DNA of 64,000 nt from Paenisporosarcina antarctica (GTDB lineage Bacteria > Bacillota > Bacilli > Bacillales_A > Planococcaceae): positions 3,540,001 to 3,604,000 of the forward strand of contig NZ_CP038015.1 in NCBI RefSeq assembly GCF_004367585.1. The letters run 5' to 3'. The number at the start of each line of letters is the position of its first letter. The first letter of the stretch is position 1. A program made the translations under genes and the position numbers. Below the pieces are notes generated by a model, which was not told where the DNA came from, did no database searches, and worked only from the letters and a program-made list of their open reading frames with translations. This document shows positions 8,567 to 33,852 of the stretch, in pieces.

Positions 8567-9670
8567 ATGTTTTTAACATTTTATAAAAACCATTACAAAA
8601 AGATCATTAACATATTATTAATGATCGCAACCTTTTATTTCATATTATTAGGTTCAGAGTTTTTACTCAAAATTGCAGCACCGATATTTATTGGTTTAAT
8701 CATTTATTCAATCACTGAACCTCTCGCTTTATTCCTTAACAGAAAGGGCTTAAAGAAAGGAATTGCAACTACACTATCCTTCACTCTATTTGTAGTGGTC
8801 ATACTTGGTATCTTTACAACCATTGGCGCTATTTTCTTTACACAAATGCAACAATTATCACAGTCCATTCCTCAATATGCTGCATCATTTGAGAATTTTA
8901 TTGTCAACCAAACAGATTTTATTCAAGGGAATATTAATAATATCCCTCCAGAAGCTTTAGAAAAAACAAAAGAATACACAACCACTGCAATAGCAAAAAT
9001 CTCGACACTACTTTCAGGATTCTTACTAGGTCTCTTAGCAACACTTTCTTCTAGTATTACAATCATAGCTAACTTAACCCTAGGGTTCTTTTTCGCTTTC
9101 TTTTTGAGTTTAGATATTAAAATTTGGAAGAAATTCTATAATACTTATGCTCCTCAAGGTGTAAAAACTTCTTTTTCATTTTTAAAAGAAAATGTGTTAA
9201 AAGGCATTTCAGGATACATGAAGGCTCAATTGAAACTAATCGGAGTTACCTTTATCGTTGTCTTAATCGTACTTCTCATTCTTCGTGTAGAGAATGCATT
9301 AACGATTGCCATATTAGCAGGTATTTTTGATGTTTTGCCACTATTGGGTGTCTCCACTTTATTCATCCCTTGGATTATTTATTTATTCATTACTGAAAAT
9401 ATCTTTCTAGCTGTATGGTTAATTGCATTACTCGTCGTTGTATTAGGAACTAGACAGGTGCTAGAGCCAAAAATAATAGGAGATTCTTTAGGTGTCTCAG
9501 CTTCTGTTATGCTAGCTGCACTCATCATAAGTATCAACATCTTAGGGTTTATAGGTCTATTGATATCCCCAATTATTATCATTTTGATTAAAGCTTTAGC
9601 GGAACAAGGTTATCTAAAAGTATGGCTGGACTTGAAGCCAGCTGTGAAAGATGTTCATAGTAAATATTAA
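8567..9670 (+). CDS. AI-2E family transporter (intact copy)
   Basis: 367-residue PF01594-type protein with about eight membrane helices. It has the usual order: an N-terminal pair of helices, a soluble middle (about residues 95-150), and a C-terminal block with DVLPLLGV and VLEPKIIGDSLGVS, which are family hallmarks. Members include AI-2 exporters and sodium/proton antiporters, so the substrate is open. A TATAAT at 8504-8509 fits a promoter, and a strong terminator follows at 9716. Its last ~130 bp recurs twice downstream in the same orientation (11288-11429 and 33721-33852), with a 49-base identical run shared with the farther copy. Confidence 0.9.
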   Translation: MFLTFYKNHYKKIINILLMIATFYFILLGSEFLLKIAAPIFIGLIIYSITEPLALFLNRKGLKKGIATTLSFTLFVVVILGIFTTIGAIFFTQMQQLSQSIPQYAASFENFIVNQTDFIQGNINNIPPEALEKTKEYTTTAIAKISTLLSGFLLGLLATLSSSITIIANLTLGFFFAFFLSLDIKIWKKFYNTYAPQGVKTSFSFLKENVLKGISGYMKAQLKLIGVTFIVVLIVLLILRVENALTIAILAGIFDVLPLLGVSTLFIPWIIYLFITENIFLAVWLIALLVVVLGTRQVLEPKIIGDSLGVSASVMLAALIISINILGFIGLLISPIIIILIKALAEQGYLKVWLDLKPAVKDVHSKY

Positions 9671-9715
9671 AAAATTTAGTTAAACAGTCTATTAGTTGGG
9701 AATTAACATGTTCAA

Positions 9716-9760
9716 AAAACCAGTAGAAAAGCCATAAATCGCTTTTCTACTGGTTTTCAT
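9716..9760 (+). terminator. Terminator of the AI-2E transporter gene
   Basis: AAAACCAGTAGAAAAG (9716-9731) pairs perfectly with CTTTTCTACTGGTTTT (9742-9757) over a 10-nt loop, with T residues at the end. Confidence 0.9.
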
Positions 9761-9830
9761 TTCTCTTTACATTTTTTCAATTATTATGCTCGTGATGTGG
9801 GTTTTCTTAAAATCAAAACGATTATTATGA

Positions 9831-10007
9831 CTAATAAGCTACTACAATCGACTCATATGCATTCTCTCTAATACTAGATCCTACCATCATTAACTCAGGA
9901 TTAAATAAAAGTAAAATGATACTTATGCCAATCGCTTTTGCAAATTTGTTATAAAAGTTTTCATAAGAGCTATTTCCTCCCTTCTTCTTTTCTCTTATAT
10001 ATAGCAA
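9831..10007 (-). pseudogene. Short decayed frame
   Basis: Minus-strand frame of up to 58 codons containing IGISIILLLFNPELMMVGSS, which looks like a membrane or signal helix followed by a polar tail. A good GGGAGGA site at about 9973-9979 instead serves an ATG in another frame that stops after 13 codons (MKTFITNLQKRLA). A one-base shift would join the two into a roughly 44-residue signal-peptide-like protein. I read this as a frameshifted small gene; the family is unknown. Confidence 0.3.
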
Positions 10008-10219
10008 CTCAAGAAATAACCCTATTACATATTTTGTTTTATATACTGTATCTACTATTTGTTAAGTTTAATGACAAATCTATTAATTAGTCTATTTATT
10101 CAATAATGAAGAAAATGGTTTTTTGAATATATTATTAGCAACTAATTTGACTTTTATACATTCTTTCAAAAATATTGGATGTTTCATGAGAAATCTAAGA
10201 AAGAGGCGGGTTTTATAAA

Positions 10220-11185
10220 ATGAGCAAGGAATTATTTAAAAAACTGATATGTATTTTAGTAGGTAATATCACATTAATTCTATTGTATTTATTTTCAGTT
10301 TATATGACCTGGTATGACCCGACAAATTTTTTTGCTGGTGTTATGTTTATGGGATCTTTTATTGGCTTACCTGTCATCATTTTCATCTTTAATTTTGTCG
10401 TGACACTCATTATGTTTTCCCTCTTAAAAGTTGAGTTTGGGAAGAATCGTCTAGCTATTACAGGTGCCATTACGATAGGTGTGTTTGTACTATTCCATAT
10501 TGGAATGAGTGTACACGCACATATAGGCAACGCCTACATCGAGAAGAACATCGAAAAGTACGCATTCGAGGGGAATGTTGAAAATTACTCAAAGGAGAAG
10601 TTGGCGGCATTGGGTGAAGAATTAGGGTACAAATTAGATTTCCGAAGTGGCATGTATGAAACGGATTTCTACAGTTACTTCTCCGGCTCTGGTGGCGGTA
10701 ATTATGATGTTGAAGGAGACTTGGAGTTAATTATTAAATTTACCATCAATGAAGATTCGTGTGATAGAAACAATTGTGGAGAAAATTTAGAGTATAAAAT
10801 TGTGTATCAATCTGACACATTTGAAATTCAAGATGTGGATATCCCTTTAAGGGACGAATACATGCTGCGGGGAATTGAAGGAGAATATCAAGAAGAGATT
10901 GGAAGCAATTATTATTACATGGTGCGTGTCACTAAAGAAGGTAAGAGGTATAAAATCGACCTTGGCGAACTGTCATCGAGTGGTTATTGGGAGAAAGAAT
11001 CGACTAATTACGGAGTCATTTTGAAAGAACCACCAACCACAAAAAAACTACACGGTGTTGTCTACTCCCCCTATAGTGACCATATCAAACACTTCGAAGG
11101 CAAAAATGCCGTAGTGTACCTTACAGGAAATGAACTACGTGTAGAAATAGAAGGTGAGAAGGTATATAGATATTACAAAAAATAA
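10220..11185 (+). CDS. Unknown membrane protein with soluble C-terminal domain, 321 aa
   Basis: ATG start with AAAGAGGCGGG about 8 nt upstream. Three hydrophobic helices (about residues 8-30, 38-68 and 78-100) are followed by a roughly 210-residue polar domain rich in Tyr, Glu and Gly, containing one Cys pair (SCDRNNCGE). The soluble part has alternating beta-like segments and is probably extracytoplasmic. It lies between the intact AI-2E gene and the first displaced copy of that gene's 3' end, so it may have arrived as cargo. No family recognised. Confidence 0.7.
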   Translation: MSKELFKKLICILVGNITLILLYLFSVYMTWYDPTNFFAGVMFMGSFIGLPVIIFIFNFVVTLIMFSLLKVEFGKNRLAITGAITIGVFVLFHIGMSVHAHIGNAYIEKNIEKYAFEGNVENYSKEKLAALGEELGYKLDFRSGMYETDFYSYFSGSGGGNYDVEGDLELIIKFTINEDSCDRNNCGENLEYKIVYQSDTFEIQDVDIPLRDEYMLRGIEGEYQEEIGSNYYYMVRVTKEGKRYKIDLGELSSSGYWEKESTNYGVILKEPPTTKKLHGVVYSPYSDHIKHFEGKNAVVYLTGNELRVEIEGEKVYRYYKK

Positions 11186-11287
11186 GCTAAAAATTGACGA
11201 TTCGGTCTAGTTGACCTGCAATTCCTCTTGACTACGTAGTTTGAAATGTAGTTACTTACTTAATCTTTCCGAGGGTTAGACTCATGT

Positions 11288-11429
11288 ATCAACATCTCGG
11301 GGTTTGTAGGGTCTATTGATATCCCCAATTATTATCATTTTGATTAAAGATTTAGTGATACAGGGTTATCTAAAAGCCTGGTTGGACTTGAAGACAGCTG
11401 AGAAAGAAGAAGTTCATAGAACGAAATAG
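11288..11429 (+). pseudogene. Displaced 3' end of the AI-2E transporter gene (copy 2)
   Basis: Matches the last ~135 bp of the gene at 8567-9670, in the same orientation and ending in its own in-frame TAG. The translation LLISPIIIILIKDLVIQGYL followed by KAWLDLK parallels the intact LLISPIIIILIKALAEQGYL. An extra G near 11308 breaks the frame further upstream, and no start exists. A run of about 39 bases is identical to the intact copy. It marks the left border of the minus-strand carboxylate island. Confidence 0.85.
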
Positions 11430-11547: not shown

Positions 11548-12396
11548 CTACTTTATGTGGTAATTAACCTTAGACAAGAGGGCATTAACTTCATTCAAAC
11601 GTTTTTTTGTACTTTCTAAATTTCTTATTGCTATTGCACTGATGAGATAGTCAGCAACAATCATCGCTACGAGAGGAGAATTATGAAAGGCCATACTACT
11701 TGAATCACATGGGAGAACAATATCTGAATGATTTACAATAGGAGAAGAGTAATTATCTGTAATACTTACAACACTTGCATTGTATTCCCTAGCTATTGAA
11801 ACAAAGTCAATAATTCTTTTCGCATATCTCGGGAAACTAGTAGCAATGACTAAGTCCGAGGAATCGAAGCTTATTACATCATCAATCCATTCGCTGTTAT
11901 CCGGTTCTATTAATTTACAATTACCCAGTGTACGATTTATTCCATGAGTTAGGTATTGACCTACTGGAAGTCCACTTCTAACACTGACACAAAAAATCCT
12001 TTTTGCGGACATAATTTTCTCTATTACAAGTTCTAGAAGTTCATCAGTAACTAAATCTGTTACTGACTGAATTTGATTAATATTATAATTGATACTACTT
12101 ACCCATAAATTATCTTGGGAAACGTCTCTTACGTTTTTTTCTAAGCGGTTAAAAGGCGCAGTTTGATTACGTAAGAGTGTTTGGAGTCCTTTTTGAAATT
12201 CAGTATAACCAGAATACCCTAGATTAACAGATAATCTCATAATAGTTGTAGTACTAGTTCCTACCTGTCTTGATAGCTCATCTACTGTTAAAAAAGCAAC
12301 TTCAGAAGGGTTTTTCAGGATATAGTTCCCAACCATTTTTTGAGAGTCTGTTAAATCAGAAATTTTATTTCTTAAAATTGTTATTGTATCACTCAT
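11548..12396 (-). CDS. RpiR family transcriptional regulator (HTH plus SIS domain)
   Basis: 282 residues. The N-terminal HTH_6 domain (about residues 1-77) contains LTVDELSRQVGTSTTTIMRL. The C-terminal SIS sugar-phosphate-isomerase fold (about 120-250) includes FCVSVRSGLPVGQY and the segment VIATSFPRYAKRIIDF typical of the ligand pocket. The ATG at 12396 was preferred to the GTG at 12405 because GGGGTG lies 6 nt ahead. It is the last gene of the operon running from 19852 and is the obvious candidate for its regulator. SIS domains normally bind phosphorylated sugars or acids, so the effector may be a pathway intermediate. Confidence 0.9.
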   Translation of the reverse strand: MSDTITILRNKISDLTDSQKMVGNYILKNPSEVAFLTVDELSRQVGTSTTTIMRLSVNLGYSGYTEFQKGLQTLLRNQTAPFNRLEKNVRDVSQDNLWVSSINYNINQIQSVTDLVTDELLELVIEKIMSAKRIFCVSVRSGLPVGQYLTHGINRTLGNCKLIEPDNSEWIDDVISFDSSDLVIATSFPRYAKRIIDFVSIAREYNASVVSITDNYSSPIVNHSDIVLPCDSSSMAFHNSPLVAMIVADYLISAIAIRNLESTKKRLNEVNALLSKVNYHIK

Positions 12397-12433
12397 TATC
12401 TTCACCCCATCTTTACCTATGCGACATATAATT

Positions 12434-13600
12434 TCACTTCTTTTTAACTCTTAAAGTCAACTTAGTAGCTGCTTTGAAATCAATGGATCCAAAGAAAATA
12501 ATAAAGCCTGTAATGTAAAAGACTGAAAAAATCCCATATAGATTAGAAACTCCACCAAGAACAACTGGAGCTACGACCTGAGTAAGCTTATTAATTGAAA
12601 GCCTTAATCCAAGACCCTCTCCTATACGTGCAGCTGGTAGTGCACGTATAGTATTCGATATTGATAATGGTTGGCCAACTCCTAAGCAAAGACCAAGAAT
12701 AAAAGAAACAAAAAGTAATATAAAAAAATTATCGGCAAGAGGATTTAGGATATATGAACAACCACCAATAACTAAAGCTGTCGTAATAATAATACTACTT
12801 TTGAATTGTTGAAGGAGAAGCGGTGTTACCATCCTAATGAATATTCCTGCTGCTGCATTTACTGATATGATTAAGCCTATCATCGCATTAGAAATGCCTT
12901 TACTTTGGGCAAGTAACGGAAAAAAGGAAATATATATGTCTTTACCTAATAACAATAAAGCACTTATTAATATAGCCTTTCTTAAAGCATGATTATTTAA
13001 TAAATCAAAGGTGTCTTTTATTTTATTATCCTTAATTTCATCTTTTATTGTTCTACTATAACCTAGTAAATAATAGATAAAGGGGAAAGCAAAAATAACT
13101 GTCATCCCTAAGTAGAACATCACAGTCGCATAGTCAAGGCTTTGTGATAATAAACCACTGACCAAAGGACCAACAAAACTCCCGATAGCAACCCCGATAC
13201 TAAAAATTGCTATGTAATATTCTTGTGTTTTTCTATCCTTCATACCTCCAGCATACGATTGGATAGAAATCACAAAAGTCATTTGCGCAACACCCGCTAG
13301 TATTTGTGAGATACATATTCCAATTATGTTTCCTAGTACAAAGGGAATAATTAAAGAAATACTACATAAACCTAGACATAGATATAAAGGGGTTTTAACA
13401 TTCACTTTATCAATAGATCTTCCTAATGGTATCGCTAAAAACAAAGAAAGTAATGAAAATAATGAAGTAATTAATCCTACCTCTGCAATATTAGCCCCTA
13501 ATTCAGTTGAATATAAAGAAATTAGGGGTCTACTTCCTGCAATAGCAAACATGAAAATGGATGTACTTATTAAAATCAGATACTTTTCTTTTATTCTCAT
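12434..13600 (-). CDS. MFS transporter
   Basis: 388-residue protein with 12 predicted helices and the loop motif LGRSIDKVNVK after helix 2. The frame starts at 13621, but AAGGT lies 5 nt before the ATG at 13600 (MRIKEKYLILIS), which I take as the start. It lies inside the TctCBA/RraA operon, between the 147-aa gene and the RpiR regulator. It may export an excess product or import a second substrate; nothing in the sequence tells which. Confidence 0.85.
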   Translation of the reverse strand: MRIKEKYLILISTSIFMFAIAGSRPLISLYSTELGANIAEVGLITSLFSLLSLFLAIPLGRSIDKVNVKTPLYLCLGLCSISLIIPFVLGNIIGICISQILAGVAQMTFVISIQSYAGGMKDRKTQEYYIAIFSIGVAIGSFVGPLVSGLLSQSLDYATVMFYLGMTVIFAFPFIYYLLGYSRTIKDEIKDNKIKDTFDLLNNHALRKAILISALLLLGKDIYISFFPLLAQSKGISNAMIGLIISVNAAAGIFIRMVTPLLLQQFKSSIIITTALVIGGCSYILNPLADNFFILLFVSFILGLCLGVGQPLSISNTIRALPAARIGEGLGLRLSINKLTQVVAPVVLGGVSNLYGIFSVFYITGFIIFFGSIDFKAATKLTLRVKKK

Positions 13601-13649
13601 GAATTTACCTTCATTATACATACGCTTCTTTCATAATGCTAATTGAACA

Positions 13650-14093
13650 TCATTTTATTCTTAGAGAATTAATAAGGCTTCTTTTCTTTACTCCAATAAA
13701 TCTTCGAAAATCTTTATTTGCGTAAGAGAAAAACACATAATTCATCGAAAATAACAGAAATAAATATATTCCTTTACTTTCAATCAAGTCTTCCTTTTTA
13801 CTACTTTCAATATTTAATAGTAAACTTTCATAGATTTCAATTGCAGGCTTCCGCCACAAGGCATTGTCATCTACAACAATATTAAATTTTTCGATTTCTT
13901 CTTTAATAATTGATTCTTCATCACTGCTTAACTGATTTAATAGTTCTTTAAAAATTAATCCGTTTTCACCTTTTTTATTTTCTAATAAAAAATATTCTAT
14001 AAACTCTCTATATTCATTTTCTTGAAGAAAATTTTTTAGCTCTTCTACATTTAGTTTTTGGATATTTGTATGTTTTAATTGAAAATTTGCCAA
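13650..14093 (-). CDS. Hypothetical protein, 147 aa, in carboxylate operon
   Basis: TTG start with AGAGG about 9 nt upstream. The protein is mostly alpha-helical and charged, with one hydrophobic segment near the C-terminus (GIYLFLLFSMNYVFFSYAN, about residues 107-125) followed by a basic tail. It is tightly placed between the Ldh2-type dehydrogenase (24-bp gap) and the MFS gene, so it is probably co-transcribed. No family recognised. Confidence 0.6.
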   Translation of the reverse strand: MANFQLKHTNIQKLNVEELKNFLQENEYREFIEYFLLENKKGENGLIFKELLNQLSSDEESIIKEEIEKFNIVVDDNALWRKPAIEIYESLLLNIESSKKEDLIESKGIYLFLLFSMNYVFFSYANKDFRRFIGVKKRSLINSLRIK

Positions 14094-14117
14094 ACCCAGT
14101 TTCCTCTCTTTAATCCT

Positions 14118-15149
14118 TTAGTCAGTCTGAATATTAAGCTTCATTGCCATCTCTTGAAGTTCTCCATAAGTTGTTTCGCTGACATTTACCATTTGCGAAT
14201 TTTCTTTTTTCTTTCTATTTTCAAGTTCACCTGGTATTAGAATCTCTTCAAAACCCGGTCGTTCTTCTGAATTCTTAAGTAGTTGAAACCAACTCTCCAT
14301 TCTATCCTTAAATGATTCAGAATCAACTACATCTTCTATTTTTATTAATAAGAAGAATTGACCAGTATTTGCAACATTACCAGATTTGAACATAGACTCG
14401 GTTTCACTACTTAAAGAGGCTCCACTTAAACCGGCACAAAGAACGTCAATAAACATAGATAAACCGTAACCTTTATGCTGGCCAATTGGAAGTAACGATC
14501 CATTTAAAGCGGTTTTTGGATCTTGCGTCTCATACCCATCTTTATCAATAGCTAGCCCAGGTGGCATATCGGTACCATTTCTTTCATAGGTACGAATTTT
14601 CCCTTTAGCTGTACCACTCGTTGCCATATCTAGAGTAAAATCTCCAAAGTTATTTGCTGGGAAAGACATTGCAATGGGGTTTGTACCTAGGAGAGGATTT
14701 ACCCCTCCCCAAGGCGCCATTGTTGGACTAGCATTTGAAGCGACAATAGCTAAAAAGCCATTTTCAGCTGCTATTCTTGAAAAATAACCTGCAGTTCCAA
14801 AGTGATTACTGTTTCTAACAGTAGCCATTACAGTGCTATTCGTTTGTAACTTTTCAAAACAATATTCTAATGTTTGAATAGCAACTACTTGACCTAACCC
14901 ATTATCTCCATCTATTACCATTATAGAACTATTGTCTTTCACAATTTTAATGTTTGGTTCAGCGTTAATTAAGTTCCCTTGAATTCTGTCAACATATGGT
15001 TTTAAACGAATTAACCCATGAGATTCAATTCCACGTTTTTCTGCGTCTACTATTGATTCAGTTACTTCACGGGCACTTTTTGGATTAACACCACTTGCTT
15101 CTAAAATTTTTTGAGTCAATTCGAATATCTCAGATATTTTTTTATTCAC
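14118..15149 (-). CDS. Malate/L-lactate/ureidoglycolate-type dehydrogenase (Ldh2 family)
   Basis: 343 residues of the PF02615 NAD(P)-dependent 2-hydroxyacid dehydrogenase fold, which is unrelated to ordinary Rossmann dehydrogenases. Family landmarks seen are VRNSNHFGTAGYFSRIA (catalytic His), GTNPIAMSFPA, FTLDMATSGTAKGKI and GQHKGYGLSMFIDVLCAGL. GTG start behind AGAGGTG. It oxidises a 2-hydroxy acid to a 2-oxo acid. In this operon it could act on the substrate brought in by TctCBA or on a product of the RraA-type aldolase. Confidence 0.9.
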   Translation of the reverse strand: MNKKISEIFELTQKILEASGVNPKSAREVTESIVDAEKRGIESHGLIRLKPYVDRIQGNLINAEPNIKIVKDNSSIMVIDGDNGLGQVVAIQTLEYCFEKLQTNSTVMATVRNSNHFGTAGYFSRIAAENGFLAIVASNASPTMAPWGGVNPLLGTNPIAMSFPANNFGDFTLDMATSGTAKGKIRTYERNGTDMPPGLAIDKDGYETQDPKTALNGSLLPIGQHKGYGLSMFIDVLCAGLSGASLSSETESMFKSGNVANTGQFFLLIKIEDVVDSESFKDRMESWFQLLKNSEERPGFEEILIPGELENRKKKENSQMVNVSETTYGELQEMAMKLNIQTD

Positions 15150-15201
15150 TCTGTTACACCTCTAATATAAGTTTTCAAATACTGAATTCCCATTTTAATA
15201 A

Positions 15202-16698
15202 CTAACTAATAATTTTTTTCTTACTACTAAATATCCCTCGGAAAAAAGGAGTGAAAAACGATATTCCCGCTACTATTAAGAACACTGCACTTATTGGTCG
15301 TGTAAAGAAAATTGAAATATCGCCACCTGATTGCAGCATAGCTTGTCTAAATCCTTCTTCAGCTATAGGCCCCAGGATAATTGCAAGGACAATGGGAGTA
15401 GATGGTACATTGATAATACGGAAAATATAACCTATAATACCAAATGCGAGCATTACCCATATGTCGTGGTAATTATTTGAAATAGCAAAACTTCCTATAA
15501 CACTTAGCAATAAAATCATTGGACCTAATAGTCTGCTTGGAATTTTTAGAACAGCAGTAAAGTATTTGACGCCGACTAATCCTAAAATCATAAATAATAT
15601 ATTAGTAACGATCAGACTTAAAAACAATGCATAAACTACGTCTCCATGATTTTGAAAAAGCATTGGCCCTGGTCGTAATCCATGTATAAGTAGACCACCT
15701 ATAAGTATTGCTGTCACAGTATTCCCTGGAATCCCAAGAGTTAAAAGCGGTATCATAGCTCCACCCGTAACAGCATTATTAGCTGCTTCTGGGGCAGCAA
15801 CTCCTGCTAACTCGCCTTTCCCGAAATTTTCTGGATGTTTTGACCATCGCATTGCTTCATTATAAGCAATAAATGCTGCAGGATCTCCCCCGATGCCAGG
15901 AATAATTCCTACAACTGTACCAATTAAAGAAGAACGAGTTATATTTGGAATTAATTTTGTAAACTCTTTAAAAGTTGGTAAAACTTTTCCTGATGCTACA
16001 CTAATTTCACTGTTCTTTTCAGGTTTTCCTGCATTCTTTATTAAAACAAATGCTTGTGAACCTGAAAACAAACCGATTAAGACCGGTATCAAATCGAATC
16101 CTCCCGTTAAATCAGAGAAGCCTAGAGTGAATCTAGGAAAACCGTTAATAGGATCCATACCTACTGTAGCGATTAAAATTCCAAGTGTACCTGCAATTAA
16201 TCCTTTAAAGGGGTTTTTCCCACCTAAACTAGAAACTATTGAAATTCCAAAAATAGCAACAGCAAAATATTCTGCCGACCCAAAACGCAATGCTTGTTGG
16301 GCTAGTGCTGGGGCGGCCGCCATTAGAATTAGAGCGCTAATAATTCCACCTATTCCGGATGCAATTGCTGATATTCCTAGCGCTTTACCACTTTTCCCTT
16401 GTTGTGATAAGGGATACCCGTCTAGCACTGTAGCTGCTCCAGCAGGAGTACCTGGAGTATTTAATAGTATGGCTGAAATAGAACCACCATAAACAGAAGC
16501 ACAATATATAGCAGATAATAGAATTATCCCCCCTGCAGGATCCATGCTAAATGTGAATGGTAAAATAATTGCTACTGCCATAGAAGAACTCATCCCAGGT
16601 ATTGCACCCATAACTAATCCAAATAATGTACCAAGTAATATTATTAATAATGTAATTGGGGAAAAAACGGTTACAACTGCTCCAAGCCATACATCCAT
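15202..16698 (-). CDS. tctA: Tripartite tricarboxylate transporter, large permease TctA (first system)
   Basis: 498-residue integral membrane protein with the repeated TctA signatures GLVMGAIPGMSSSMAVAI near the N-terminus and GTVVGIIPGIGGDPAAFIAY in the middle, plus GVAAPEAANNAVTGGAMIP. It forms the channel of a binding-protein-dependent secondary transporter with TctB (16714-17178) and TctC (17247-18209). ATG start with AAAGGAGAG upstream. The system is paralogous to the one at 28190-31215. Confidence 0.95.
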   Translation of the reverse strand: MDVWLGAVVTVFSPITLLIILLGTLFGLVMGAIPGMSSSMAVAIILPFTFSMDPAGGIILLSAIYCASVYGGSISAILLNTPGTPAGAATVLDGYPLSQQGKSGKALGISAIASGIGGIISALILMAAAPALAQQALRFGSAEYFAVAIFGISIVSSLGGKNPFKGLIAGTLGILIATVGMDPINGFPRFTLGFSDLTGGFDLIPVLIGLFSGSQAFVLIKNAGKPEKNSEISVASGKVLPTFKEFTKLIPNITRSSLIGTVVGIIPGIGGDPAAFIAYNEAMRWSKHPENFGKGELAGVAAPEAANNAVTGGAMIPLLTLGIPGNTVTAILIGGLLIHGLRPGPMLFQNHGDVVYALFLSLIVTNILFMILGLVGVKYFTAVLKIPSRLLGPMILLLSVIGSFAISNNYHDIWVMLAFGIIGYIFRIINVPSTPIVLAIILGPIAEEGFRQAMLQSGGDISIFFTRPISAVFLIVAGISFFTPFFRGIFSSKKKIIS

Positions 16699-16713
16699 AA
16701 TTCTTTCTCTCCT

Positions 16714-17178: not shown

Positions 17179-17212
17179 ACGATAACCTCCTACTCTAGCT
17201 CTATACTTATAG

Positions 17213-17237
17213 ATAGTCCCCTATAAAAGGGGACTAT
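17213..17237. promoter_or_regulatory. Intercistronic hairpin between tctC and tctB (first system)
   Basis: ATAGTCCCC and GGGGACTAT pair perfectly over a 7-nt loop, just after the tctC stop. A similar hairpin occupies the same position in the second tct operon (30193-30216). Hairpins here typically raise the level of the binding protein over the membrane subunits by partial termination or by protecting the 3' end. Confidence 0.6.
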
Positions 17238-17246
17238 TAATTTGTC

Positions 17247-23827: not shown

Positions 23828-23940
23828 GTTGGCTCCTCCTTTTTTCTTTAGAAAAACCAGCCAAAGTACGCACGGTCCTTTAAGACAGCAAATGATTTAA
23901 GTAACAGTTTAGAAGGATATTCCATATAGTATCTACTTTG

Positions 23941-24070: not shown

Positions 24071-24096
24071 TTCTAAATAATGAAATAATACTTTAC

Positions 24097-24597: not shown

Positions 24598-24693
24598 TTT
24601 GCTCGGATTTTATTACTAGTTTTTTATTATGAAATTGATTTATCTAGTAAAAAAATAGCCCAGGTGATTTAATCATCCAGACTACTCTTTCTA

Positions 24694-25842: not shown

Positions 25843-25851
25843 CTCCTCTTC

Positions 25852-26754
25852 TTATTCGGGTATTACAGTTTTAGCAATTTGCTTATCCAAACTTTCATAA
25901 TCATGTAGTTTAATTGTTTCGTATAATTCTTTTCTAGTCTGCATCTTATCAAGGACACCTTTTTGGGTTCCTTTTTCAGCAATCTCTCTGAATACTACTT
26001 CATACGCTTTTGCTGCAGCACGGAGAGAAGTAACTGGATAAATAACCATAGAGTAGCCGAAGTCTTCAAACTGCTCTGCAGTAAAGTACTCAGTTCGACC
26101 AAATTCAGTCATATTTGCGAGCAGTGGTACAGTAAATTGTCCGCTGACCTGTCGAAACTCATCTTCAGTTGTAAGAGCTTCTGGAAAAATAGCATCTGCC
26201 CCAGCTTCAACGTATTGATGTAGTCTGTCTATCGCACTATCTAATCCTTCTACTGACAATGCATCTGTACGTGCAACAATAACTAATGATGGAGCAACTT
26301 CTTTGATCGTTTTTATTTTTTGGATCATTTCCTCAACTGGAATAAGTTTTTTACCATTTAAATGACCGCATTTTTTGGGCAAATCCTGATCTTCAATCTG
26401 TATTGCTGCTACATTTGCCTCAACCATTTCTTTAGCTGCTCGAGCTACATTTAAAATTCCACCAAACCCTGTATCGATATCAGCTAATAATGGTAAATTT
26501 GTTGCGCGTATAATATCACGCGCGCGCTCTGCCACTTCTTGAGAATGTAAAATCCCTAAATCCGGGAGACCTCTACTTGCTGTGAACGCTGCTCCTGATA
26601 AATACAATGATTTAAAGCCTGTTTGTTTGGCGACTAAACCTGACATACCATCATGTGCTCCAATAATTTTTAATAGTTGATCTTCATTAATAAGCTGTAA
26701 AAATTCTTGAGCCAACTCAGATTGACTCTTTTGTTTTTCAATTAACCAAGTCAT
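25852..26754 (-). CDS. prpB: Methylisocitrate lyase (PrpB/YqiQ-like)
   Basis: 300 residues of the isocitrate-lyase/PEP-mutase superfamily. The active-site loop KKCGHLNGKKL, the metal region VDIDTGFGG-like (LADIDTGFGG) and IEDQ are present, as is the C-terminal IYPVTSLRAAAKAYE. The sequence reads very close to Bacillus subtilis YqiQ (MmgF) from memory. It cleaves 2-methylisocitrate to pyruvate and succinate. AAGGAGG lies 8 nt ahead of the ATG. Here its neighbours are prpF and an aconitase rather than mmgD/mmgE, so the upstream half of the pathway differs from that in B. subtilis. Confidence 0.92.
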   Translation of the reverse strand: MTWLIEKQKSQSELAQEFLQLINEDQLLKIIGAHDGMSGLVAKQTGFKSLYLSGAAFTASRGLPDLGILHSQEVAERARDIIRATNLPLLADIDTGFGGILNVARAAKEMVEANVAAIQIEDQDLPKKCGHLNGKKLIPVEEMIQKIKTIKEVAPSLVIVARTDALSVEGLDSAIDRLHQYVEAGADAIFPEALTTEDEFRQVSGQFTVPLLANMTEFGRTEYFTAEQFEDFGYSMVIYPVTSLRAAAKAYEVVFREIAEKGTQKGVLDKMQTRKELYETIKLHDYESLDKQIAKTVIPE

Positions 26755-26769
26755 TAGTAGTCCTCCTTT

Positions 26770-28152
26770 TTAGTGAACTGTGATGATTGTATTCCAATAA
26801 AATAAAACTGAACCTAAAACTACTAATAGCCAAATTATCGTTGAAAACATACCGAACCGTAATAAATCTTTCTCAGTAAAATGTCCATAGGAATAACTGA
26901 TAAGATGAACCGGGGATTGTGTGATCAGTAAAAATCCTGGTACACCAGTTAAAAATACTGCCATTGCAATCTCAAGCGAAGTTAAACCTGTTACATTATT
27001 CCCTACTGTAATAGCTATAGGAATCATAATGGTCAAAAATCCTAGAACATTCACAAAAACGATACGGATTAGAGCCGTTACAACGATCATGAAAATTAAC
27101 AATAGTATTGGAGAATAGCCCGTAAATTTCAAAACAATTACATTGGCAATCCAATCTACCGCGCCCGTTTCAATTAGCATTTTTGCAACCATTAAGGTTC
27201 CTGCAAAAAACAGGATCATATCCCAATCCACTTTCTTACGTGCTGTTTCCCAATTCCAAATTCCAATTACCGGCATTACGGTTAAACTGGCACTCAATAA
27301 AGCGATTAAAGGAACCGAAAAGTGATGAAAACCTTCAGTAATCCATAAAATAACAGCTAAACCAATTATGCACAGTACTTTAATTTCATCTACTGTTATA
27401 CTTCCTAGTTCTCCCATTTTTTCATCGATTAAATTCACAACTACTTTACTTTCAATTGCTTCAGGTGGATAAATCAATATAAATAGTAGCCACAATAAGA
27501 CGATAAAAAGAAAAATCGGTGGTAAAAACAACATTATCCAATTTAGATAGTTCATTTCATCCGTTATTTCTGAAAGTAATCCATATGCATAAATTGTCGA
27601 ACTGGCACCAGTCGCTACAAAAGAACCTGATAACGCGACAACATAAGTCAAACCAATAAATAATGATTTAGACAAATTCGTCACTTTACTAATTTTTTTT
27701 AAATTAGTGACAATACTATCTAATACTGAAGCGATCAGACTACCTTTGCCGACGTTAGAAGGAATTAACACAGAAAGAACAAACATAATTAGAAATGAAA
27801 TAAAAACCAACTTTTTTCCTGAACCACTAGAAAGTCTAAGCATTTTCAGTGCTATCCTACTTGCAAGTCCTGTCTTAATAAAAGCATGTGAGATAATGAA
27901 AGTTGCAAATAGAAGCCATATTATTCCAGAACCAAAATAACTCATGGTTTCTTCAAATGAGAAAAAGTGAAAAGAAAGCATAATCATTAACAAAATTGAA
28001 CTAAACGCTAACGGAAATACTCTACCAATCCATAGAATCTGTATGATGAACAATAATACAACTGCTTTCACCTTTATATCCCATTCAAAGAACGGTAATA
28101 AAAATATACAATAAAGAATCACTGATATAGAAAGTAGTATCTTTTTTTTCAT
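26770..28152 (-). CDS. DASS/SLC13 family anion transporter (CitT-like)
   Basis: 460 residues with about 12 helices and the two re-entrant loop regions typical of the family, around GSGIIWLLFATFIISHA and VDWDMILFFAGTLMVAKMLI. The usual SNT motifs are replaced by TGASSTI and TQSPVHL, so substrate preference may differ. Members import or exchange di- and tricarboxylates with sodium or succinate. In this operon it could bring in a second tricarboxylate or export succinate formed by PrpB. It lies 15 bp before prpB. Confidence 0.88.
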   Translation of the reverse strand: MKKKILLSISVILYCIFLLPFFEWDIKVKAVVLLFIIQILWIGRVFPLAFSSILLMIMLSFHFFSFEETMSYFGSGIIWLLFATFIISHAFIKTGLASRIALKMLRLSSGSGKKLVFISFLIMFVLSVLIPSNVGKGSLIASVLDSIVTNLKKISKVTNLSKSLFIGLTYVVALSGSFVATGASSTIYAYGLLSEITDEMNYLNWIMLFLPPIFLFIVLLWLLFILIYPPEAIESKVVVNLIDEKMGELGSITVDEIKVLCIIGLAVILWITEGFHHFSVPLIALLSASLTVMPVIGIWNWETARKKVDWDMILFFAGTLMVAKMLIETGAVDWIANVIVLKFTGYSPILLLIFMIVVTALIRIVFVNVLGFLTIMIPIAITVGNNVTGLTSLEIAMAVFLTGVPGFLLITQSPVHLISYSYGHFTEKDLLRFGMFSTIIWLLVVLGSVLFYWNTIITVH

Positions 28153-28189
28153 CGTTACACACCTGCTAAGAATTGATATCGTTTTAACA

Positions 28190-29692
28190 TCATAATGATT
28201 TTTGAATTTTACGCTTCTTGAACCAACTTACAATCAGTGGATAAAATAATGATAGTAGAGTTAACAATGTAAGAGTTATTGTAATAGGCGACATAAAAAT
28301 AACACTAAATGCCCCTTCTGATCCAACCATACTTTTCCTGAAATTTTGTTCCATATCAGAGCCTACAATGACTGCCAATATTAGAGGTGCAATAGGGAAA
28401 TCTAGCAGTTTCATCGCAAGTCCAAGCAGTCCGAAGATTAATAAGAACGTAAAGTCGATTGTGCTGTAGCTTAATGTGTAAGTACCTATAAACGCCAGTA
28501 CTAGTATCAGTGGAAAAAGAACTTTTGCCGGTATATCTAATACTTTGACAAGTATCCCGACCATTAGAATATTCATTATAACTAGGAAAATATTTCCGAT
28601 AAACATACTATTAATAAATGTCCATACAAGTAGCGGATCATTTTCAAATAAGAGCGGTCCTGGACGTATTCCTAGCATGACAACAGCACCTAATATAACA
28701 GCCGTTGTTCCGGATCCTGGAATACCCATCGTTAGAAGTGGAATAAACGCACCTACTGATGCTGCATTGTTCGCAGACTCAGGAGCAGCAAGCCCTTCAA
28801 CAGCACCTTTCCCGAACTCTTCCGGGTGTTTTGAAAGTTGTTTTTCAGTTGTGTAACTTAGCATAGATGCGATCGCGCCGCCTGCTCCAGGCAAAACGCC
28901 GATTAGAAATCCTAATGGTGCACTTCTTATCATCGGCCACTTGGAACGTTTCCATTGCTCTTTAGTTATCCAAATTTTACCAACTTCTTTTGATTTAGTT
29001 TTTATTTTATCAATTCCTATGTAATTAAACATAACTTCTCCAACTGCGTAAATTCCGATAATTACAATAAGAAAATCAATACCTTCACTTAACTCAGGAA
29101 GGCCTAACGTAAATCGATGAACACCCGACTGTAAATCAATGCCCATCGTAGTGAGCAAAAGGCCAATTGTCATTGAAATAAATCCTTTTATCATCGCCCC
29201 TTTTGATAAGGCTACAATTGCTGATAGCGTAAAAATCATAAGTAAGAAATATTCAGCCGGTCCAAAACGCAATGCAAAACTTGCTAGAGGTTTCGCCAAT
29301 AGAATGAAACCAACTATTGCAACTAGCCCGCCGATTAGCGATGCTATTGCTGATATAGCAAGCGCTTGACCCGCTTGGCCCTTTTGAGCCATAGGATAGC
29401 CATCAAAAGTTGCTGCAATTGCGGATCCATCTCCTGGAGTATTTAATAGGATAGAACTCCTCGAGCCGCCATACATTGCTCCATAATAAATTGCTGCCAT
29501 TAACACTAAAGCACTTACCGGATCCATTCCAAAAGTGATTGGTATTAACAAGGCTATTGCTGTAGCTGGTCCAAGGCCAGGTAGCATTCCGACTACTGTC
29601 CCTAGAAATCCTCCAAGTGCAACCCAGAAAAGATTTATCGGTTGCAACGCTGTCATTAAACCTTCCAGTACTATATTAAAATCTACTCCCAT
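28190..29692 (-). CDS. tctA: Tripartite tricarboxylate transporter, large permease TctA (second system)
   Basis: 500 residues with the TctA repeats GTVVGMLPGLGPATAIALLI and GFLIGVLPGAGGAIASMLSY, and GLAAPESANNAASVGAFIP. It is clearly paralogous to the protein at 15202 but diverged throughout, so the two systems probably carry different substrates. It follows tctB by 17 bp and precedes the DASS gene. Confidence 0.95.
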   Translation of the reverse strand: MGVDFNIVLEGLMTALQPINLFWVALGGFLGTVVGMLPGLGPATAIALLIPITFGMDPVSALVLMAAIYYGAMYGGSRSSILLNTPGDGSAIAATFDGYPMAQKGQAGQALAISAIASLIGGLVAIVGFILLAKPLASFALRFGPAEYFLLMIFTLSAIVALSKGAMIKGFISMTIGLLLTTMGIDLQSGVHRFTLGLPELSEGIDFLIVIIGIYAVGEVMFNYIGIDKIKTKSKEVGKIWITKEQWKRSKWPMIRSAPLGFLIGVLPGAGGAIASMLSYTTEKQLSKHPEEFGKGAVEGLAAPESANNAASVGAFIPLLTMGIPGSGTTAVILGAVVMLGIRPGPLLFENDPLLVWTFINSMFIGNIFLVIMNILMVGILVKVLDIPAKVLFPLILVLAFIGTYTLSYSTIDFTFLLIFGLLGLAMKLLDFPIAPLILAVIVGSDMEQNFRKSMVGSEGAFSVIFMSPITITLTLLTLLSLFYPLIVSWFKKRKIQKSL

Positions 29693-29709
29693 TATTTCTT
29701 ACCTCCTAT

Positions 29710-30153
29710 TTATGGCAGACTCACTTTGAGTAAGATTGCAAATGAATACCATGTAAGCCCTGAAAAACAAATTGCAATCACTATATTTGATATCCACTTT
29801 TTCCTTCCATTGATAATGAATAGAAGTCCTCCAAGAAAAATAATAGTAGAAAACAAAAATCCGATTTTCTCAAATAGAAACGCGTATATTAAACTTAAAA
29901 CTATTGTCGAAATAAGTAGAAAGGGTGTACGACCCTTTAAGAGAAGTTCCAATTCCGGAAATCCATCATGTCGCTTTCTCCATTCCTGAATAATGTATAT
30001 TACGCTTAATAAAATAAGTAATCCCGATACCAAAGTCGGGTAATACATTGGACCATACGGATCTCCTAATCTAGCTTTAGGTAAATTTAGTGAACTGATA
30101 AGGAAAGTCGCACCTACTAGAAAGAATATAATTGGTAAGAATAAACGGAACAT
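29710..30153 (-). CDS. tctB: Tripartite tricarboxylate transporter, small subunit TctB (second system)
   Basis: 147 residues, four predicted helices with a charged loop between helices 2 and 3 (WRKRHDGFPELELLLKG), the standard TctB layout. It lies 78 bp after tctC, with a hairpin in the gap. Confidence 0.88.
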   Translation of the reverse strand: MFRLFLPIIFFLVGATFLISSLNLPKARLGDPYGPMYYPTLVSGLLILLSVIYIIQEWRKRHDGFPELELLLKGRTPFLLISTIVLSLIYAFLFEKIGFLFSTIIFLGGLLFIINGRKKWISNIVIAICFSGLTWYSFAILLKVSLP

Positions 30154-30192
30154 GTCTTCTCTCCATTCCTTTTCATGTTTGTCTAAAAGAAT

Positions 30193-30216
30193 AATGGACC
30201 CTTTTAAGGATCCATT
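30193..30216. promoter_or_regulatory. Intercistronic hairpin between tctC and tctB (second system)
   Basis: AATGGACCC and GGATCCATT pair with one mismatch over a 6-nt loop, directly after the tctC stop. It corresponds in position to the hairpin at 17213-17237 in the other tct operon. Confidence 0.55.
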
Positions 30217-30231
30217 TAATTTTCATTCATT

Positions 30232-31215
30232 TTAATCAGTTAATCCTGAGTCAGTTAGTAACTTATCATAATTTTCTGTTTGGACCTTCAAGAATTCCGA
30301 AGTTTCTGCACTATTCTTATAGAACGGGAGCCAATCATTATTTTTTAACAACGTCTTCCATGCTTCCGTTTCGACCATTTTAGCGATAGCATCGTCATAG
30401 TAAGCAATTTCTTCCTCTGTCATATCCGGTGGTCCTACAATTCCTCTCCAGTGAGGGAATACCATATCAATTCCTTGCTCTTTCCATGTTTGAACTTCTT
30501 CCAAGCCCTCAAGTCGCTCTTCTGAGGACACTGAAATTATTTTGAAATTCTTTGCTAAATGTTGCTCTTTTGATTCTGAGACAGACATTGTTGCGACATC
30601 AACATGATTACCAAGTAGTGCTGTAACAACATCTCCACCACTCTCGTAAATTAAAATATTTAATTTAGTAACATCAACACCAAATTCTTTTGCAGCTTGT
30701 ACAAATGATAAATGGTCGTTATTACCTAAACCAGGAGCTAAAGCAATTTTTATTGAAGTTGGATCTTTTTTCAATTGCTCCATTAATTCTGTTGCATCTT
30801 CAAAAGGAGAATCATTTGGAACAGCAATCGAAATCCATTCCGTTGTTAAGATTGCCAAAGGAGTTAAATCTTCATAGCTTAATTCACTTTGTCCTAGTAA
30901 ATTATTTGTAATAAGCAAGCTAGAATCAATTGCTACTGTATGAGCATCTTTTTCTTTTGTATACTGCCAGCCCACTTCACCGCTTCCACCCGGCTTATTT
31001 ACAACATTGATATTTTCTTCAACAATGCCTTCATCATCTAGGATTTTCTGTATAGCTCTTGCTGTTGCATCCCATCCACCACCTGGTGTTGCAGGTGCCA
31101 CTAATTCAATATTATCATTTGGGAATGACTCTGGTTCAGCATCTGCCCCTTCCGAAGAACAAGCCCCCAAAACGAATATTGCACTTAAACCTAAGTAAGT
31201 AAATAATTTTTTCAA
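30232..31215 (-). CDS. tctC: Tripartite tricarboxylate transporter substrate-binding lipoprotein TctC (second system)
   Basis: 327 residues; signal MKKLFTYLGLSAIFVLGACS ends in the lipobox LGAC. Ligand-pocket segments VAPATPGGGWDATARAIQ, NKPGGSGEVGWQYT and HWRGIVGPPDM are present. It is the first gene of the transport and degradation operon, 127 bp downstream of the response regulator gene; this gap is where the regulator would be expected to bind. Confidence 0.93.
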   Translation of the reverse strand: MKKLFTYLGLSAIFVLGACSSEGADAEPESFPNDNIELVAPATPGGGWDATARAIQKILDDEGIVEENINVVNKPGGSGEVGWQYTKEKDAHTVAIDSSLLITNNLLGQSELSYEDLTPLAILTTEWISIAVPNDSPFEDATELMEQLKKDPTSIKIALAPGLGNNDHLSFVQAAKEFGVDVTKLNILIYESGGDVVTALLGNHVDVATMSVSESKEQHLAKNFKIISVSSEERLEGLEEVQTWKEQGIDMVFPHWRGIVGPPDMTEEEIAYYDDAIAKMVETEAWKTLLKNNDWLPFYKNSAETSEFLKVQTENYDKLLTDSGLTD

Positions 31216-31342
31216 CTATTTCAACTCCTATTCAAATTTTCTTAATCTTCATACTAAGCTAAACATTTGAATATGTAACCGTTTACAATTTTAAAAAATT
31301 TAAAAACTTTACTATCATTTTGTTCATTAAATTCATTTTTTC

Positions 31343-32014
31343 TTACAAATAGTATTTTCTTTCAGGTCTACCCACAATCCCATATTCCAATTCGGCTTTC
31401 ACTTTTCCAATTGACACTAGGTATTGTAAATATCTTCTAGCTGTCGTTCTAGAGGCATTCATTTTAATTCCTACTTCTTCTGCAGTTGCACCATTGTCCA
31501 TACTACCGATAATTTCAACTATCTTTTTCAAGGTTATTGAATTAATCCCTTTTGGTAGTTCATTATCTTCCTGAATTTCTGTAACCTTATTCTTTAAAAC
31601 TTGATCAATGAAATCTTGTGTGACCAGTTCTTTTGACTCGAGCAATGCTTTCCTTTTTATAAAGTTGTTAATGACCTCTGTGAATTTCTCCATTGCTACA
31701 GGTTTAATCAAATAGTAAAATATACCGTATTTTAAACTTTCATCTAATAATTCCATATTGTTAGCTGCTGTGATCACAATAAAACTGAGATGAGGATAAT
31801 CAAGCTTTAACTCTTTTATGAGCTCCGTTCCCAGTTTATCGGGCATATATATATCCACTAATAATAAATCCACATGATTTTCTCTAATTATTTTTAGCAC
31901 ATCTATCGCTTGATGAGCTTTTCCAACTACAGACACACCATAAATTTCGTTGAGAAATTTTTCGTGGATATTAGCAACCCGAAAGTCATCTTCTACAATC
32001 GCTACATTTATCAT
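31343..32014 (-). CDS. Response regulator of the CitB/DcuR/DctR type
   Basis: 223 residues. The receiver domain starts INVAIVEDDFRVANIHEKFL and carries the phospho-acceptor Asp in LLLVDIYMPDKLGTEL. The C-terminal helix-turn-helix includes EEVGIKMNASRTTARRYLQY. Longer upstream codons (to 32068) overlap the kinase gene; the ATG at 32014 with AAGGGATG 7 nt upstream is preferred. It follows the kinase gene by 19 bp. Known relatives activate uptake genes for citrate, fumarate or malate, so the tctCBA operon that follows is the likely target. Confidence 0.92.
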   Translation of the reverse strand: MINVAIVEDDFRVANIHEKFLNEIYGVSVVGKAHQAIDVLKIIRENHVDLLLVDIYMPDKLGTELIKELKLDYPHLSFIVITAANNMELLDESLKYGIFYYLIKPVAMEKFTEVINNFIKRKALLESKELVTQDFIDQVLKNKVTEIQEDNELPKGINSITLKKIVEIIGSMDNGATAEEVGIKMNASRTTARRYLQYLVSIGKVKAELEYGIVGRPERKYYL

Positions 32015-32033
32015 AAACGCACATCCCTTATCT

Positions 32034-33611
32034 TTACTTTGGTATAAACACTGTAAAAGTCGTTCCACTGGCTTCGCAGTTGACTTCTATTGAACCATTG
32101 AGTTCTTTAACTACTTTTATTACATTCGATAACCCAAATCCTCGTCCACTACCACTTTTTGTCGTATAGCCCTGGTCAAATATCAAATCTATATCTTCCT
32201 TCGATATACCCATTCCTGAATCTACTATTTCTAAAACAATTTCTTCACCGTAGTCAACTGCGAAAAAAACAACTTTCTTTTCAACACATTGAGCTACTGC
32301 CTCAAAAGCGTTATCTATCAAGTTTCCAATAATAATTGTACTTTGGGCTGTTGTAATATGCTTTGGAAAAACACCTAATGTACTAGTCTCCTCAATATGA
32401 AAATCTATTTTTTTCTCTGATGCTTTTCCTATTTTCCCAAATAGAAGCGCTTGAATTTTCAAATCTTTAATCTGCTCAAATATGAGATTATTGTTCTGTT
32501 GCACGATTACACTTTCATTTTGAATCATTTCTAGAGCTTCTTCCTGATGCCCTAGTTGAAGTAGCCCAGAGATCACATAAAGCTTATTTTGAAACTCATG
32601 GGTCTGCGCTCTGAGATCATCTGAAAGTGTTTGAACCTCAGATAAGGTGTTCATTAATTTCAACATTTCAGTTTTGTCTTTGAATGTTAATACAGTTCCA
32701 ACGTTTTGTTCTTCTTTCATTATTGGGAAAATGTTTAATATTACGACATAGCCATTAATATCTATCTCCAAAGAAGAATGTGTTTGATTTTTTTCAATTA
32801 TTTCCGTTATTTTTGGTGTTTGGATTGCATCGTAAATAGGTTTGTTTTCATACGTGCTATCTAAACCTAAAATATTTTGAGCTGCTTGGTTCATCAGAGT
32901 TATTCTCTTTGAATTGTCCATAGCTATGATCCCTTCATTAATAGAAGAGAGTATGGCATTACGATCTCGGTAAAGCGTTGCTATTTCACGAGGTTCTAAG
33001 TCCAAAGTATCTTTTCTGATATTTCTAGCTAATAAAATACTAGATATCACACCAATTAGTATGATAAATATTACAAATATAGATATATCCTTTACTCTAT
33101 TAATAGTAGCTGTTATTATCTCGTCTTTTAGATAACCTACAGTAACAACTCCTATCACTTGCTTTTGATCATTAAAAATTGGGGCCTTACCGACTATTGA
33201 AAGACCTACATTTTGTTCAGATACTAGGGAATAATAGCCTCCAAAAACGATAGCCTTAAAGTTTTCATGTATTTTATTATAAGAATTTATTTTATCTTCT
33301 ATAGGATGAGCTAGTATTTTACCATCACGATTTTCAATTATTATGAAATTGGCATCCACCTGACTGCTGATACGAATTGCCAGATGTTGCAATTCCTCAT
33401 TTTGATTTAACATGGTTAAGGCTTCTTCAACAGAATTCATATTAGCTACCGTCTTAGCGGTCTGTAGACCTATTCTTGTTGAGTTTTCAACGCTCTGGTT
33501 AATTTCATAATAAGTAAAAAAACTTAACGAAACAAATATGATTCCAATAACCAAAGAAACTATCAAACCCATAATTTTTGTCTGAAGAGATACATTTAAT
33601 AAATTTTTCAT
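32034..33611 (-). CDS. Sensor histidine kinase of the CitA/DcuS family
   Basis: 525 residues. Helix 1 (about 12-34), an extracytoplasmic Cache-type sensor domain (about 35-170), helix 2 (ISIFVIFIILIGVISSILLA), a PAS domain (about 215-320), the SpoOB-type phospho-acceptor segment LRAQTHEFQNKLYVISGLLQ with its His, and a C-terminal ATPase domain with NLIDNAFEA and DSGMGISKEDIDLIFDQGY. This family senses external di- and tricarboxylates directly. With the linked regulator it probably switches on the tct/DASS/prp genes in response to the same external acid. It ends at the right border of the carboxylate island. Confidence 0.93.
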   Translation of the reverse strand: MKNLLNVSLQTKIMGLIVSLVIGIIFVSLSFFTYYEINQSVENSTRIGLQTAKTVANMNSVEEALTMLNQNEELQHLAIRISSQVDANFIIIENRDGKILAHPIEDKINSYNKIHENFKAIVFGGYYSLVSEQNVGLSIVGKAPIFNDQKQVIGVVTVGYLKDEIITATINRVKDISIFVIFIILIGVISSILLARNIRKDTLDLEPREIATLYRDRNAILSSINEGIIAMDNSKRITLMNQAAQNILGLDSTYENKPIYDAIQTPKITEIIEKNQTHSSLEIDINGYVVILNIFPIMKEEQNVGTVLTFKDKTEMLKLMNTLSEVQTLSDDLRAQTHEFQNKLYVISGLLQLGHQEEALEMIQNESVIVQQNNNLIFEQIKDLKIQALLFGKIGKASEKKIDFHIEETSTLGVFPKHITTAQSTIIIGNLIDNAFEAVAQCVEKKVVFFAVDYGEEIVLEIVDSGMGISKEDIDLIFDQGYTTKSGSGRGFGLSNVIKVVKELNGSIEVNCEASGTTFTVFIPK

Positions 33612-33720
33612 TTTTTCCTCTATTTCCTCAATACAGATTTCTGTTCTTCTCTTTAAAACTTAATATACTAAACATACAGATTATATTAGGGGAATGCTAG
33701 TTGTTGATATTGGAAAATGA

Positions 33721-33852
33721 ATCTTGACGTTTATAGGTCTTTTGATATCCCCAATAATTATCATTTTAATAAAAGCTTTAGCGGAACAAGGTTATCTAAA
33801 AGTATGGCTGGACTTGAAGCAAGCTGAGAGAGATGTTCATACTTTGAAATAG
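33721..33852 (+). pseudogene. Displaced 3' end of the AI-2E transporter gene (copy 3)
   Basis: Same orientation as the intact gene at 8567-9670 and covering its last ~130 bp. It includes 49 consecutive identical bases and only about seven differences over roughly 113 bp. It reads FIGLLISPIIIILIKALAEQ into GYLKVWLDLK and ends at its own TAG. No start or upstream part of the gene is present. It forms the right border of the carboxylate island, about 110 bp beyond the kinase start. Confidence 0.88.

What the first reader, a model, noticed from the sequence alone, without database searches (positions are those of the whole stretch)
8567..33852. Carboxylate island bracketed by displaced 3' ends of an AI-2E transporter gene
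The last ~130 bp of the AI-2E gene (8567-9670) recurs at 11288-11429 and 33721-33852, both in the gene's own orientation and each ending at its own stop codon. The second copy shares 49 consecutive identical bases with the intact gene. Everything between the two copies (11.43-33.72 kb) is minus-strand carboxylate uptake and degradation genes; between the intact gene and the first copy lies one unknown membrane-protein gene. Insertion at the 3' end of a host gene, with the element restoring the end and leaving the old end downstream, gives this picture, usually at tRNA genes. Two such events in a row would explain three ends. No integrase is visible, so the mechanism is inferred.
Basis: partly seen in the sequence, partly recalled or inferred. 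Interest (0 to 1): 0.85.

Follow-up and report, generated by a model that had tools for sequence, protein, structure and literature searches.

The report
Relic gene ends bracketing inserted genes
In this bacterium one membrane-transporter gene has two cut-off copies of its tail further down the chromosome, most likely scars of DNA being inserted and shuffled in a variable region; the scars are real, but nothing found shows a special mobile element at work.

Summary
The last 121-134 bp of the AI-2E gene recur in the same orientation at 11286-11419 (87%) and 33721-33841 (92%); 49 consecutive bases are shared with the second copy, and the genome search reports no further match. The insertion reading is half supported. 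In Paenisporosarcina sp. TG20 (protein 96% identical) the one full-length gene, in a colinear locus, runs straight into sequence homologous to the 34 bp right of copy 2 (0 of 400 shuffles), and that contig lacks the island. So copy 2 keeps the old end, and the present gene tip looks replaced. Nested integrase-type insertion is not supported: no tyrosine or serine recombinase in the window; left edges of three displaced ends differ (9411, 9531, 9539); the gene is rare (2 of 261 family genomes); the copy nearest the gene is the more decayed; the first interval holds a segment linked to another gene in three relatives. Best reading: recombination scars in a variable locus, with AI-2E as homology anchor. 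The textbook e14/icd case gives similar numbers, so an integrase origin is not excluded. A known kind, low interest.

The parts
8567..9670 (+). Intact AI-2E family transporter gene (367 aa; NCBIfam YtvI model just above cut-off)
9531..9660 (+). Part of the gene that recurs downstream (its last ~130 bp)
9766..10176 (-). Displaced ~410-bp segment with a shortened small gene; in G002, G004 and G008 its relative stands beside the M48 peptidase gene
10220..11185 (+). ORF of 321 aa (looks like a membrane protein), no Pfam or NCBIfam match
11286..11429 (+). Copy 1: displaced, decayed AI-2E 3' end with own TAG; one frameshift
11548..33611 (-). Island: RpiR regulator, MFS, two TctABC sets, Ldh_2 dehydrogenase, RraA-like aldolase, methyltransferase, aconitase, PrpF, PrpB-like lyase, DASS symporter, DcuR/DcuS-like two-component system
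33721..33852 (+). Copy 2: displaced AI-2E 3' end with own TAG
33842..33875 (+). 34 bp homologous to the 3' tail and flank of the intact AI-2E gene of Paenisporosarcina sp. TG20: the old gene end
34399..34578 (+). Lysine riboswitch
34713..35603 (+). dapA (DHDPS)

Best explanation
The two tail fragments are recombination scars in a variable chromosomal locus. An AI-2E gene once ended at what is now 33.85 kb. One or more events then put foreign and rearranged local DNA between the body of the gene and its old end. On one side the join was made by homologous exchange inside AI-2E with incoming DNA that carried an AI-2E allele, which gave the gene its present, different tip. On the other side it was made by an illegitimate join a little upstream in the old copy, leaving copy 2. 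Copy 1 is an older relic that was already in, or came with, the inserted DNA. Shown: the copies, the sharp left edges, the old-end junction in TG20, the variable locus in two genomes. Inferred: the imported tip, the homologous-plus-illegitimate mechanism and the order of events.
For: Copy 2's right flank is homologous to the 3' tail of the TG20 gene over 34 bp (0 of 400 shuffles; 0 of 200), while the present gene's own flank is not shown to be (50 of 400). Left edges are abrupt, with no detectable homology beyond (106 and 174 of 400). The present gene end and copy 2 are sister sequences (100% bootstrap on 121 bp). The three edges lie at different places (9411, 9531, 9539). Between window plus 20 kb on its left and TG20 contig c360, the shared DNA is one stretch left of the window, AI-2E (8550-9659) with its end copies and the 34-bp flank, short repeats, and 38.9-46.0 kb; both flanks of AI-2E differ. 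Genes at the left of the locus are defence genes that differ: Zorya-type and a helicase here, BREX in TG20, a type IV restriction-like enzyme in both. DNA right of the gene includes a segment that in three relatives stands beside M48. In the same locus a piece of an alcohol dehydrogenase gene is displaced too.
Against: Only one relative carries the gene, so the order of events rests on two genomes. The e14/icd yardstick, a true integrase case, shows a similar signature: 165 bp, 12 mismatches (93% identity), mostly synonymous, identity falling past the stop. No donor with the gene and the island together was seen. Natural transformation in this genus was not examined. Higher divergence of the end of the gene from TG20, expected if the tip was imported, is only suggestive (17 of 207 against 43 of 886, P 0.06; three other cut points P 0.11-0.20). 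An unanchored comparison of the right flanks of copy 2 and TG20 was much weaker (4.7% of 300 shuffles as good).
Confidence: 0.5

Rival explanations
1. Site-specific integration at the gene's 3' end (e14/icd type): one or two elements inserted at a core near 9531-9547, each supplying a new gene end and pushing the old one downstream; the integrase was later lost.
For: Similar to icd/icdC in E. coli K-12 by the same measures (165 bp, 10 synonymous and 2 nonsynonymous differences). Copy 1 and copy 2 edges lie only about 8-20 bp apart. The old gene end is joined directly to the gene in TG20. TG20 has a tyrosine recombinase gene in the same locus, 9.4 kb upstream of AI-2E.
Against: No recombinase in the window by PF00589 or PF00239. 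Edges differ by at least 8 bp, and by about 120 bp in TG20's fragment. The TG20 recombinase lies on the other side of the gene from the island. The gene is rare (2 of 261). Decay order is opposite to nesting. DNA left of the edges of copy 1 and copy 2 is not alike (84% of 300 shuffles as good).
Confidence: 0.25
2. Paralogue loss: several AI-2E genes once stood in the genus; deletions or insertions removed their 5' parts, and three tails happen to remain.
For: TG20's second fragment (c227) differs from the TG20 gene by 16 synonymous and 4 nonsynonymous changes, so it diverged under coding constraint before it was cut; over the same 249 bp its synonymous difference (0.26-0.28) is a little above that between the two intact genes (0.23). 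Copy 1 decays like free sequence (4 synonymous, 10 nonsynonymous against the intact gene).
Against: No genome of 261 in the family shows two full-length genes of this kind. The three fragments found are all 3' ends. Gradual decay does not explain the abrupt edges. The 121-bp tree joins c227 with the TG20 gene (76%), which does not favour an old separate lineage.
Confidence: 0.2
3. Simple tandem duplication that began inside the gene, with later replacement of the duplicated flank.
For: A tandem array that repeats a gene's 3' end exists elsewhere in this genome (2658613-2659388).
Against: The sequence right of the intact gene does not resemble that right of copy 2 (137 of 400 shuffles as good). 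Apart from dispersed repeats (around 24 kb against 46 and 50 kb), nothing in 9.7-33.7 kb repeats the DNA right of 33.85 kb.
Confidence: 0.05

Closest known systems
Prophage e14 in icd of Escherichia coli K-12 (displaced end icdC)
   Same: Displaced 3' end of a protein gene in the gene's orientation; 93% identity over 165 bp; mostly synonymous differences; the present gene has a tip supplied with the insert (passages of PMC6379469)
   Different: e14 carries intE and phage genes; here no recombinase, catabolic cargo, unequal edges, and a rare gene
Homology-facilitated illegitimate recombination
   Same: One join by homology, the other illegitimate (PMC3240628, start of abstract in the search listing); that this leaves a partial gene copy is my inference
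   Different: Not observed here; inferred from the anatomy only
Merodiploidy by transformation in Streptococcus pneumoniae
   Same: Partial chromosome duplications bordered by repeats (PMC3784515, abstract and section list)
   Different: Tandem duplications of about 100-900 kb; here no duplicated flank

Membership tests
Integrative element at the 3' end of a protein gene (e14/icd type) | Displaced gene end downstream, same orientation | tested here: met
   yardstick
Integrative element at the 3' end of a protein gene (e14/icd type) | Gene joined directly to the far flank in an uninterrupted relative (empty site) | tested here: inconclusive
   Met for 34 bp in TG20, but TG20 carries other DNA beyond, and its dapA is on another contig
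Integrative element at the 3' end of a protein gene (e14/icd type) | Tyrosine or serine recombinase inside the element | tested here: not met
   (six-frame search of the whole genome)
Integrative element at the 3' end of a protein gene (e14/icd type) | Same crossover edge in all copies | tested here: not met
   9531, 9539, and 9411 in TG20; copy 1's edge is uncertain by about 10 bp
Integrative element at the 3' end of a protein gene (e14/icd type) | Excision or circular form | not testable with these tools
   needs cultures or reads
Homology-facilitated illegitimate recombination scar | Homologous join on one side, unrelated junction on the other | tested here: inconclusive
   Edges abrupt, no common edge; the homologous exchange inside the gene is only suggested (P 0.06-0.20)
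Homology-facilitated illegitimate recombination scar | Donor DNA with AI-2E allele and island contiguous | tested here: inconclusive
   None seen: gene in 2 of 261 family genomes, TG20 contig c360 lacks the island; one search scored only 1-2 candidates per genome

The most novel reading that the evidence does not exclude
The 3' end of this AI-2E/YtvI-like gene is an attachment site, not met in the few paper searches made here, for a family of integrative elements in Paenisporosarcina. The island and the short segment before it would be two grounded elements, and the TG20 fragment on contig c227 the scar of a third.
Probability: 0.12. Interest if true: 0.45.

Novelty: new member of a known kind. 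Interest (0 to 1): 0.25.

Why it matters
Gene tails left behind at inserted DNA record how bacterial islands are built. Here they suggest that a 22-kb carboxylate island entered a locus whose left part holds differing defence systems, at a point marked by an accessory protein gene rather than a tRNA gene. If an integrase were found for it, a new attachment site would follow; as it stands it is an instructive but ordinary scar.

Tried and rejected
Tandem duplication: flanks of the intact gene and copy 2 are not alike. Gradual decay of whole paralogues: edges are abrupt. Plasmid or phage source of the gene: plasmids give 9 records, all under 60% identity, and no DNA match to its last 291 bases; phages none; IMG/VR none (3 pattern hits, none a relative). 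Island as one unit elsewhere in the family: the best listed relative, G015, matches only window 24654-32002 (73%) and 21128-23636 (70%); only 1-2 first-look candidates per genome were scored, so absence is not shown. A general habit of leaving gene ends: 351 ORFs of 150 aa or more in 484 kb of this genome were compared with their own block. Ten had a match elsewhere (E up to 1e-12), one of them an antisense ORF inside the alcohol dehydrogenase gene. Only AI-2E had distant 3'-end copies; one gene (2659279-2661252) had its end inside a tandem array; one ORF had a displaced 5' part. The stretches were chosen by position, not at random, and the ORFs are mechanical. A rooted order of the five ends was not reached: c227 is slightly more distant by synonymous changes but groups with the TG20 gene in the 121-bp tree (76%). 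Papers: 'AI-2E' with 'integration site' and 'integrative element' 0 papers; Paenisporosarcina with 'genomic island' 3, none pertinent by title and abstract start; a six-term search on integrase targets 0.

Full report
Observation. The AI-2E gene (8567-9670, +) has two partial copies in its own orientation, 11286-11419 and 33721-33841; the search of the 3.97-Mb genome reports no other match (40 of 58 candidates scored). E-values of 4.8e-38 and 1.8e-43 leave no room for chance. Both reach stop codons of their own, and the 49 identical bases are exact. The ORFs from 11548 to 33611 that carry a family match are on the minus strand: RpiR, MFS, Ldh_2, two TctABC transporters, a dehydrogenase with DUF1932, RraA-like aldolase, a methyltransferase, aconitase, PrpF, a methylisocitrate-lyase-like protein (TIGR02317 above cut-off), a DASS symporter and a DcuR/DcuS-like pair.

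Relatives. By DNA 6 of 61 genomes (own included) match at E up to 0.001, but only G007 over the whole gene (95%); the other four matches are short and distant. By protein (E up to 1e-60) 2 of 261 family genomes have it, G000 and G007. In a class sample 43 of 398 genomes pass that threshold, G000 included, the others at 49% identity or less. G007's 51371-base contig with this gene corresponds to the record found by name as Paenisporosarcina sp. TG20. So the gene looks accessory. TG20's contig c360 is colinear with this genome: a 72% identical stretch 10.5-13.4 kb left of the window, then AI-2E, then window 38.9-46.0 kb. The left stretch covers a restriction-type helicase (PADLOC mREase_IV for TG20's copy; same Pfam domains in both). 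Between these, apart from AI-2E, its end copies and short repeats, nothing is shared by BLAST. TG20 has BREX genes and a tyrosine recombinase, a protein with a colicin-type nuclease domain, an AlbA_2 protein and others. This genome has Zorya-type genes, the carboxylate island and dapA. The locus looks like a hotspot.

The old gene end. Anchored at the end of the shared gene sequence, the next 34 bases of copy 2 and of the TG20 gene align without gaps (score 16; 0 of 400 shuffles). TG20's reading frame covers 23 of the 34. Ten flank pairs were compared: the next best were copy 1 against copy 2 (7 of 400), the intact gene against c227 (35 of 400) and the intact gene against TG20 (50 of 400). An unanchored local comparison with 150-base flanks gave only 4.7% for copy 2 against TG20 and 3% for copy 1 against copy 2. 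So copy 2 is the counterpart of TG20's gene end, and the gene at 8567 appears to have a different tip.

The edges. Left of the copies no remaining homology is detectable (106 and 174 of 400 shuffles as good). The edges lie at gene positions 9531 (copy 1; 9520-9531 by scoring) and 9539 (copy 2). TG20's own displaced end, on contig c227 beside an AbrB-domain ORF, a YafQ-like ORF (below Pfam's cut-off) and a Fic gene, starts at 9411. DNA left of the three edges is not alike.

Ages. In the 121 bp common to all five ends the intact gene and copy 2 group together with 100% bootstrap, and TG20's two ends with 76%. Copy 1 differs from the intact gene by 4 synonymous and 10 nonsynonymous changes and a frameshift, as free sequence would. 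Copy 2 differs by 5 and 5, two of the latter at the very edge. TG20's c227 differs from the TG20 gene by 16 and 4. So c227 clearly, and copy 2 perhaps (P 0.06 against the intact gene, 0.016 against TG20), diverged mostly as working genes before they were cut, while copy 1 seems to have been a relic for longer. Two nested insertions predict the opposite for copy 1. This rests on few changes.

The first interval. Window 9766-10176 is 90-93% identical to a segment that in G002, G004 and G008 stands beside the M48 peptidase gene. Here it lies on the other side of M48 (5875-7158), beyond AI-2E. It looks like moved chromosomal DNA, not element DNA.

Recombinases. PF00589 matches two places in this genome (1.94 and 2.03 Mb). 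PF00239 matches seven, two of them on contig 2, the nearest about 26 kb left of the window. None is in the window. In TG20 a tyrosine recombinase (301 aa, 61 bits) lies 9.4 kb upstream of AI-2E.

Yardstick. The e14/icd case in E. coli K-12, measured the same way, gives a 165-bp displaced end with 12 mismatches, 10 synonymous and 2 nonsynonymous, and identity falling past the stop (passages of PMC6379469). The present numbers are similar, so an integrase origin with later loss of the recombinase cannot be excluded on the ends alone. The missing recombinase, the unequal edges, the rarity of the gene, the decay order and the moved segment tell against it.

Conclusion. The scars are real. An insertion or exchange between gene and old end is supported by TG20; the nested integrase-type mechanism is not. 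The most likely cause is recombination anchored on AI-2E in a variable locus, with illegitimate joins.

Noticed in passing
window 38882-39019 and 39966-40103: A 138-bp piece of the Fe-alcohol dehydrogenase gene (38396-39844) is repeated just downstream (93%). TG20 has only a fragment (c360:5665-5893) at the same place with about the same left edge, flanked by copies of a 'GTTTCCATCCCTGGG' motif.
   Followed up: partly
G000 contig 1, 2.60-2.67 Mb (L121-L124): Many 50-500 bp intergenic repeats, most of the listed pairs in the same orientation, lie between genes. Rfam at gathering score names none of them; some carry a GGGTGGCACC...GTGCCACCC inverted repeat.
   Followed up: partly
G000 contig 1, 2658613-2659388: Tandem array that repeats the 3' end of a 657-aa ORF (2659279-2661252, -).
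   Followed up: no
L105 (20 kb left of the window) and L011: Defence genes at the left of the locus: Zorya-type genes, a helicase and a type IV restriction-like enzyme here; BREX genes (BrxC, PglX, PglZ) and a tyrosine recombinase in TG20.
   Followed up: partly
window 24386-24638: Dispersed intergenic repeat inside the island, 73-92% identical at places in several family genomes including TG20.
   Followed up: no
window 11466-11498: Terminator-like hairpin after copy 1 is 94% identical to one at TG20 c360:6506-6538, in colinear orientation.
   Followed up: no
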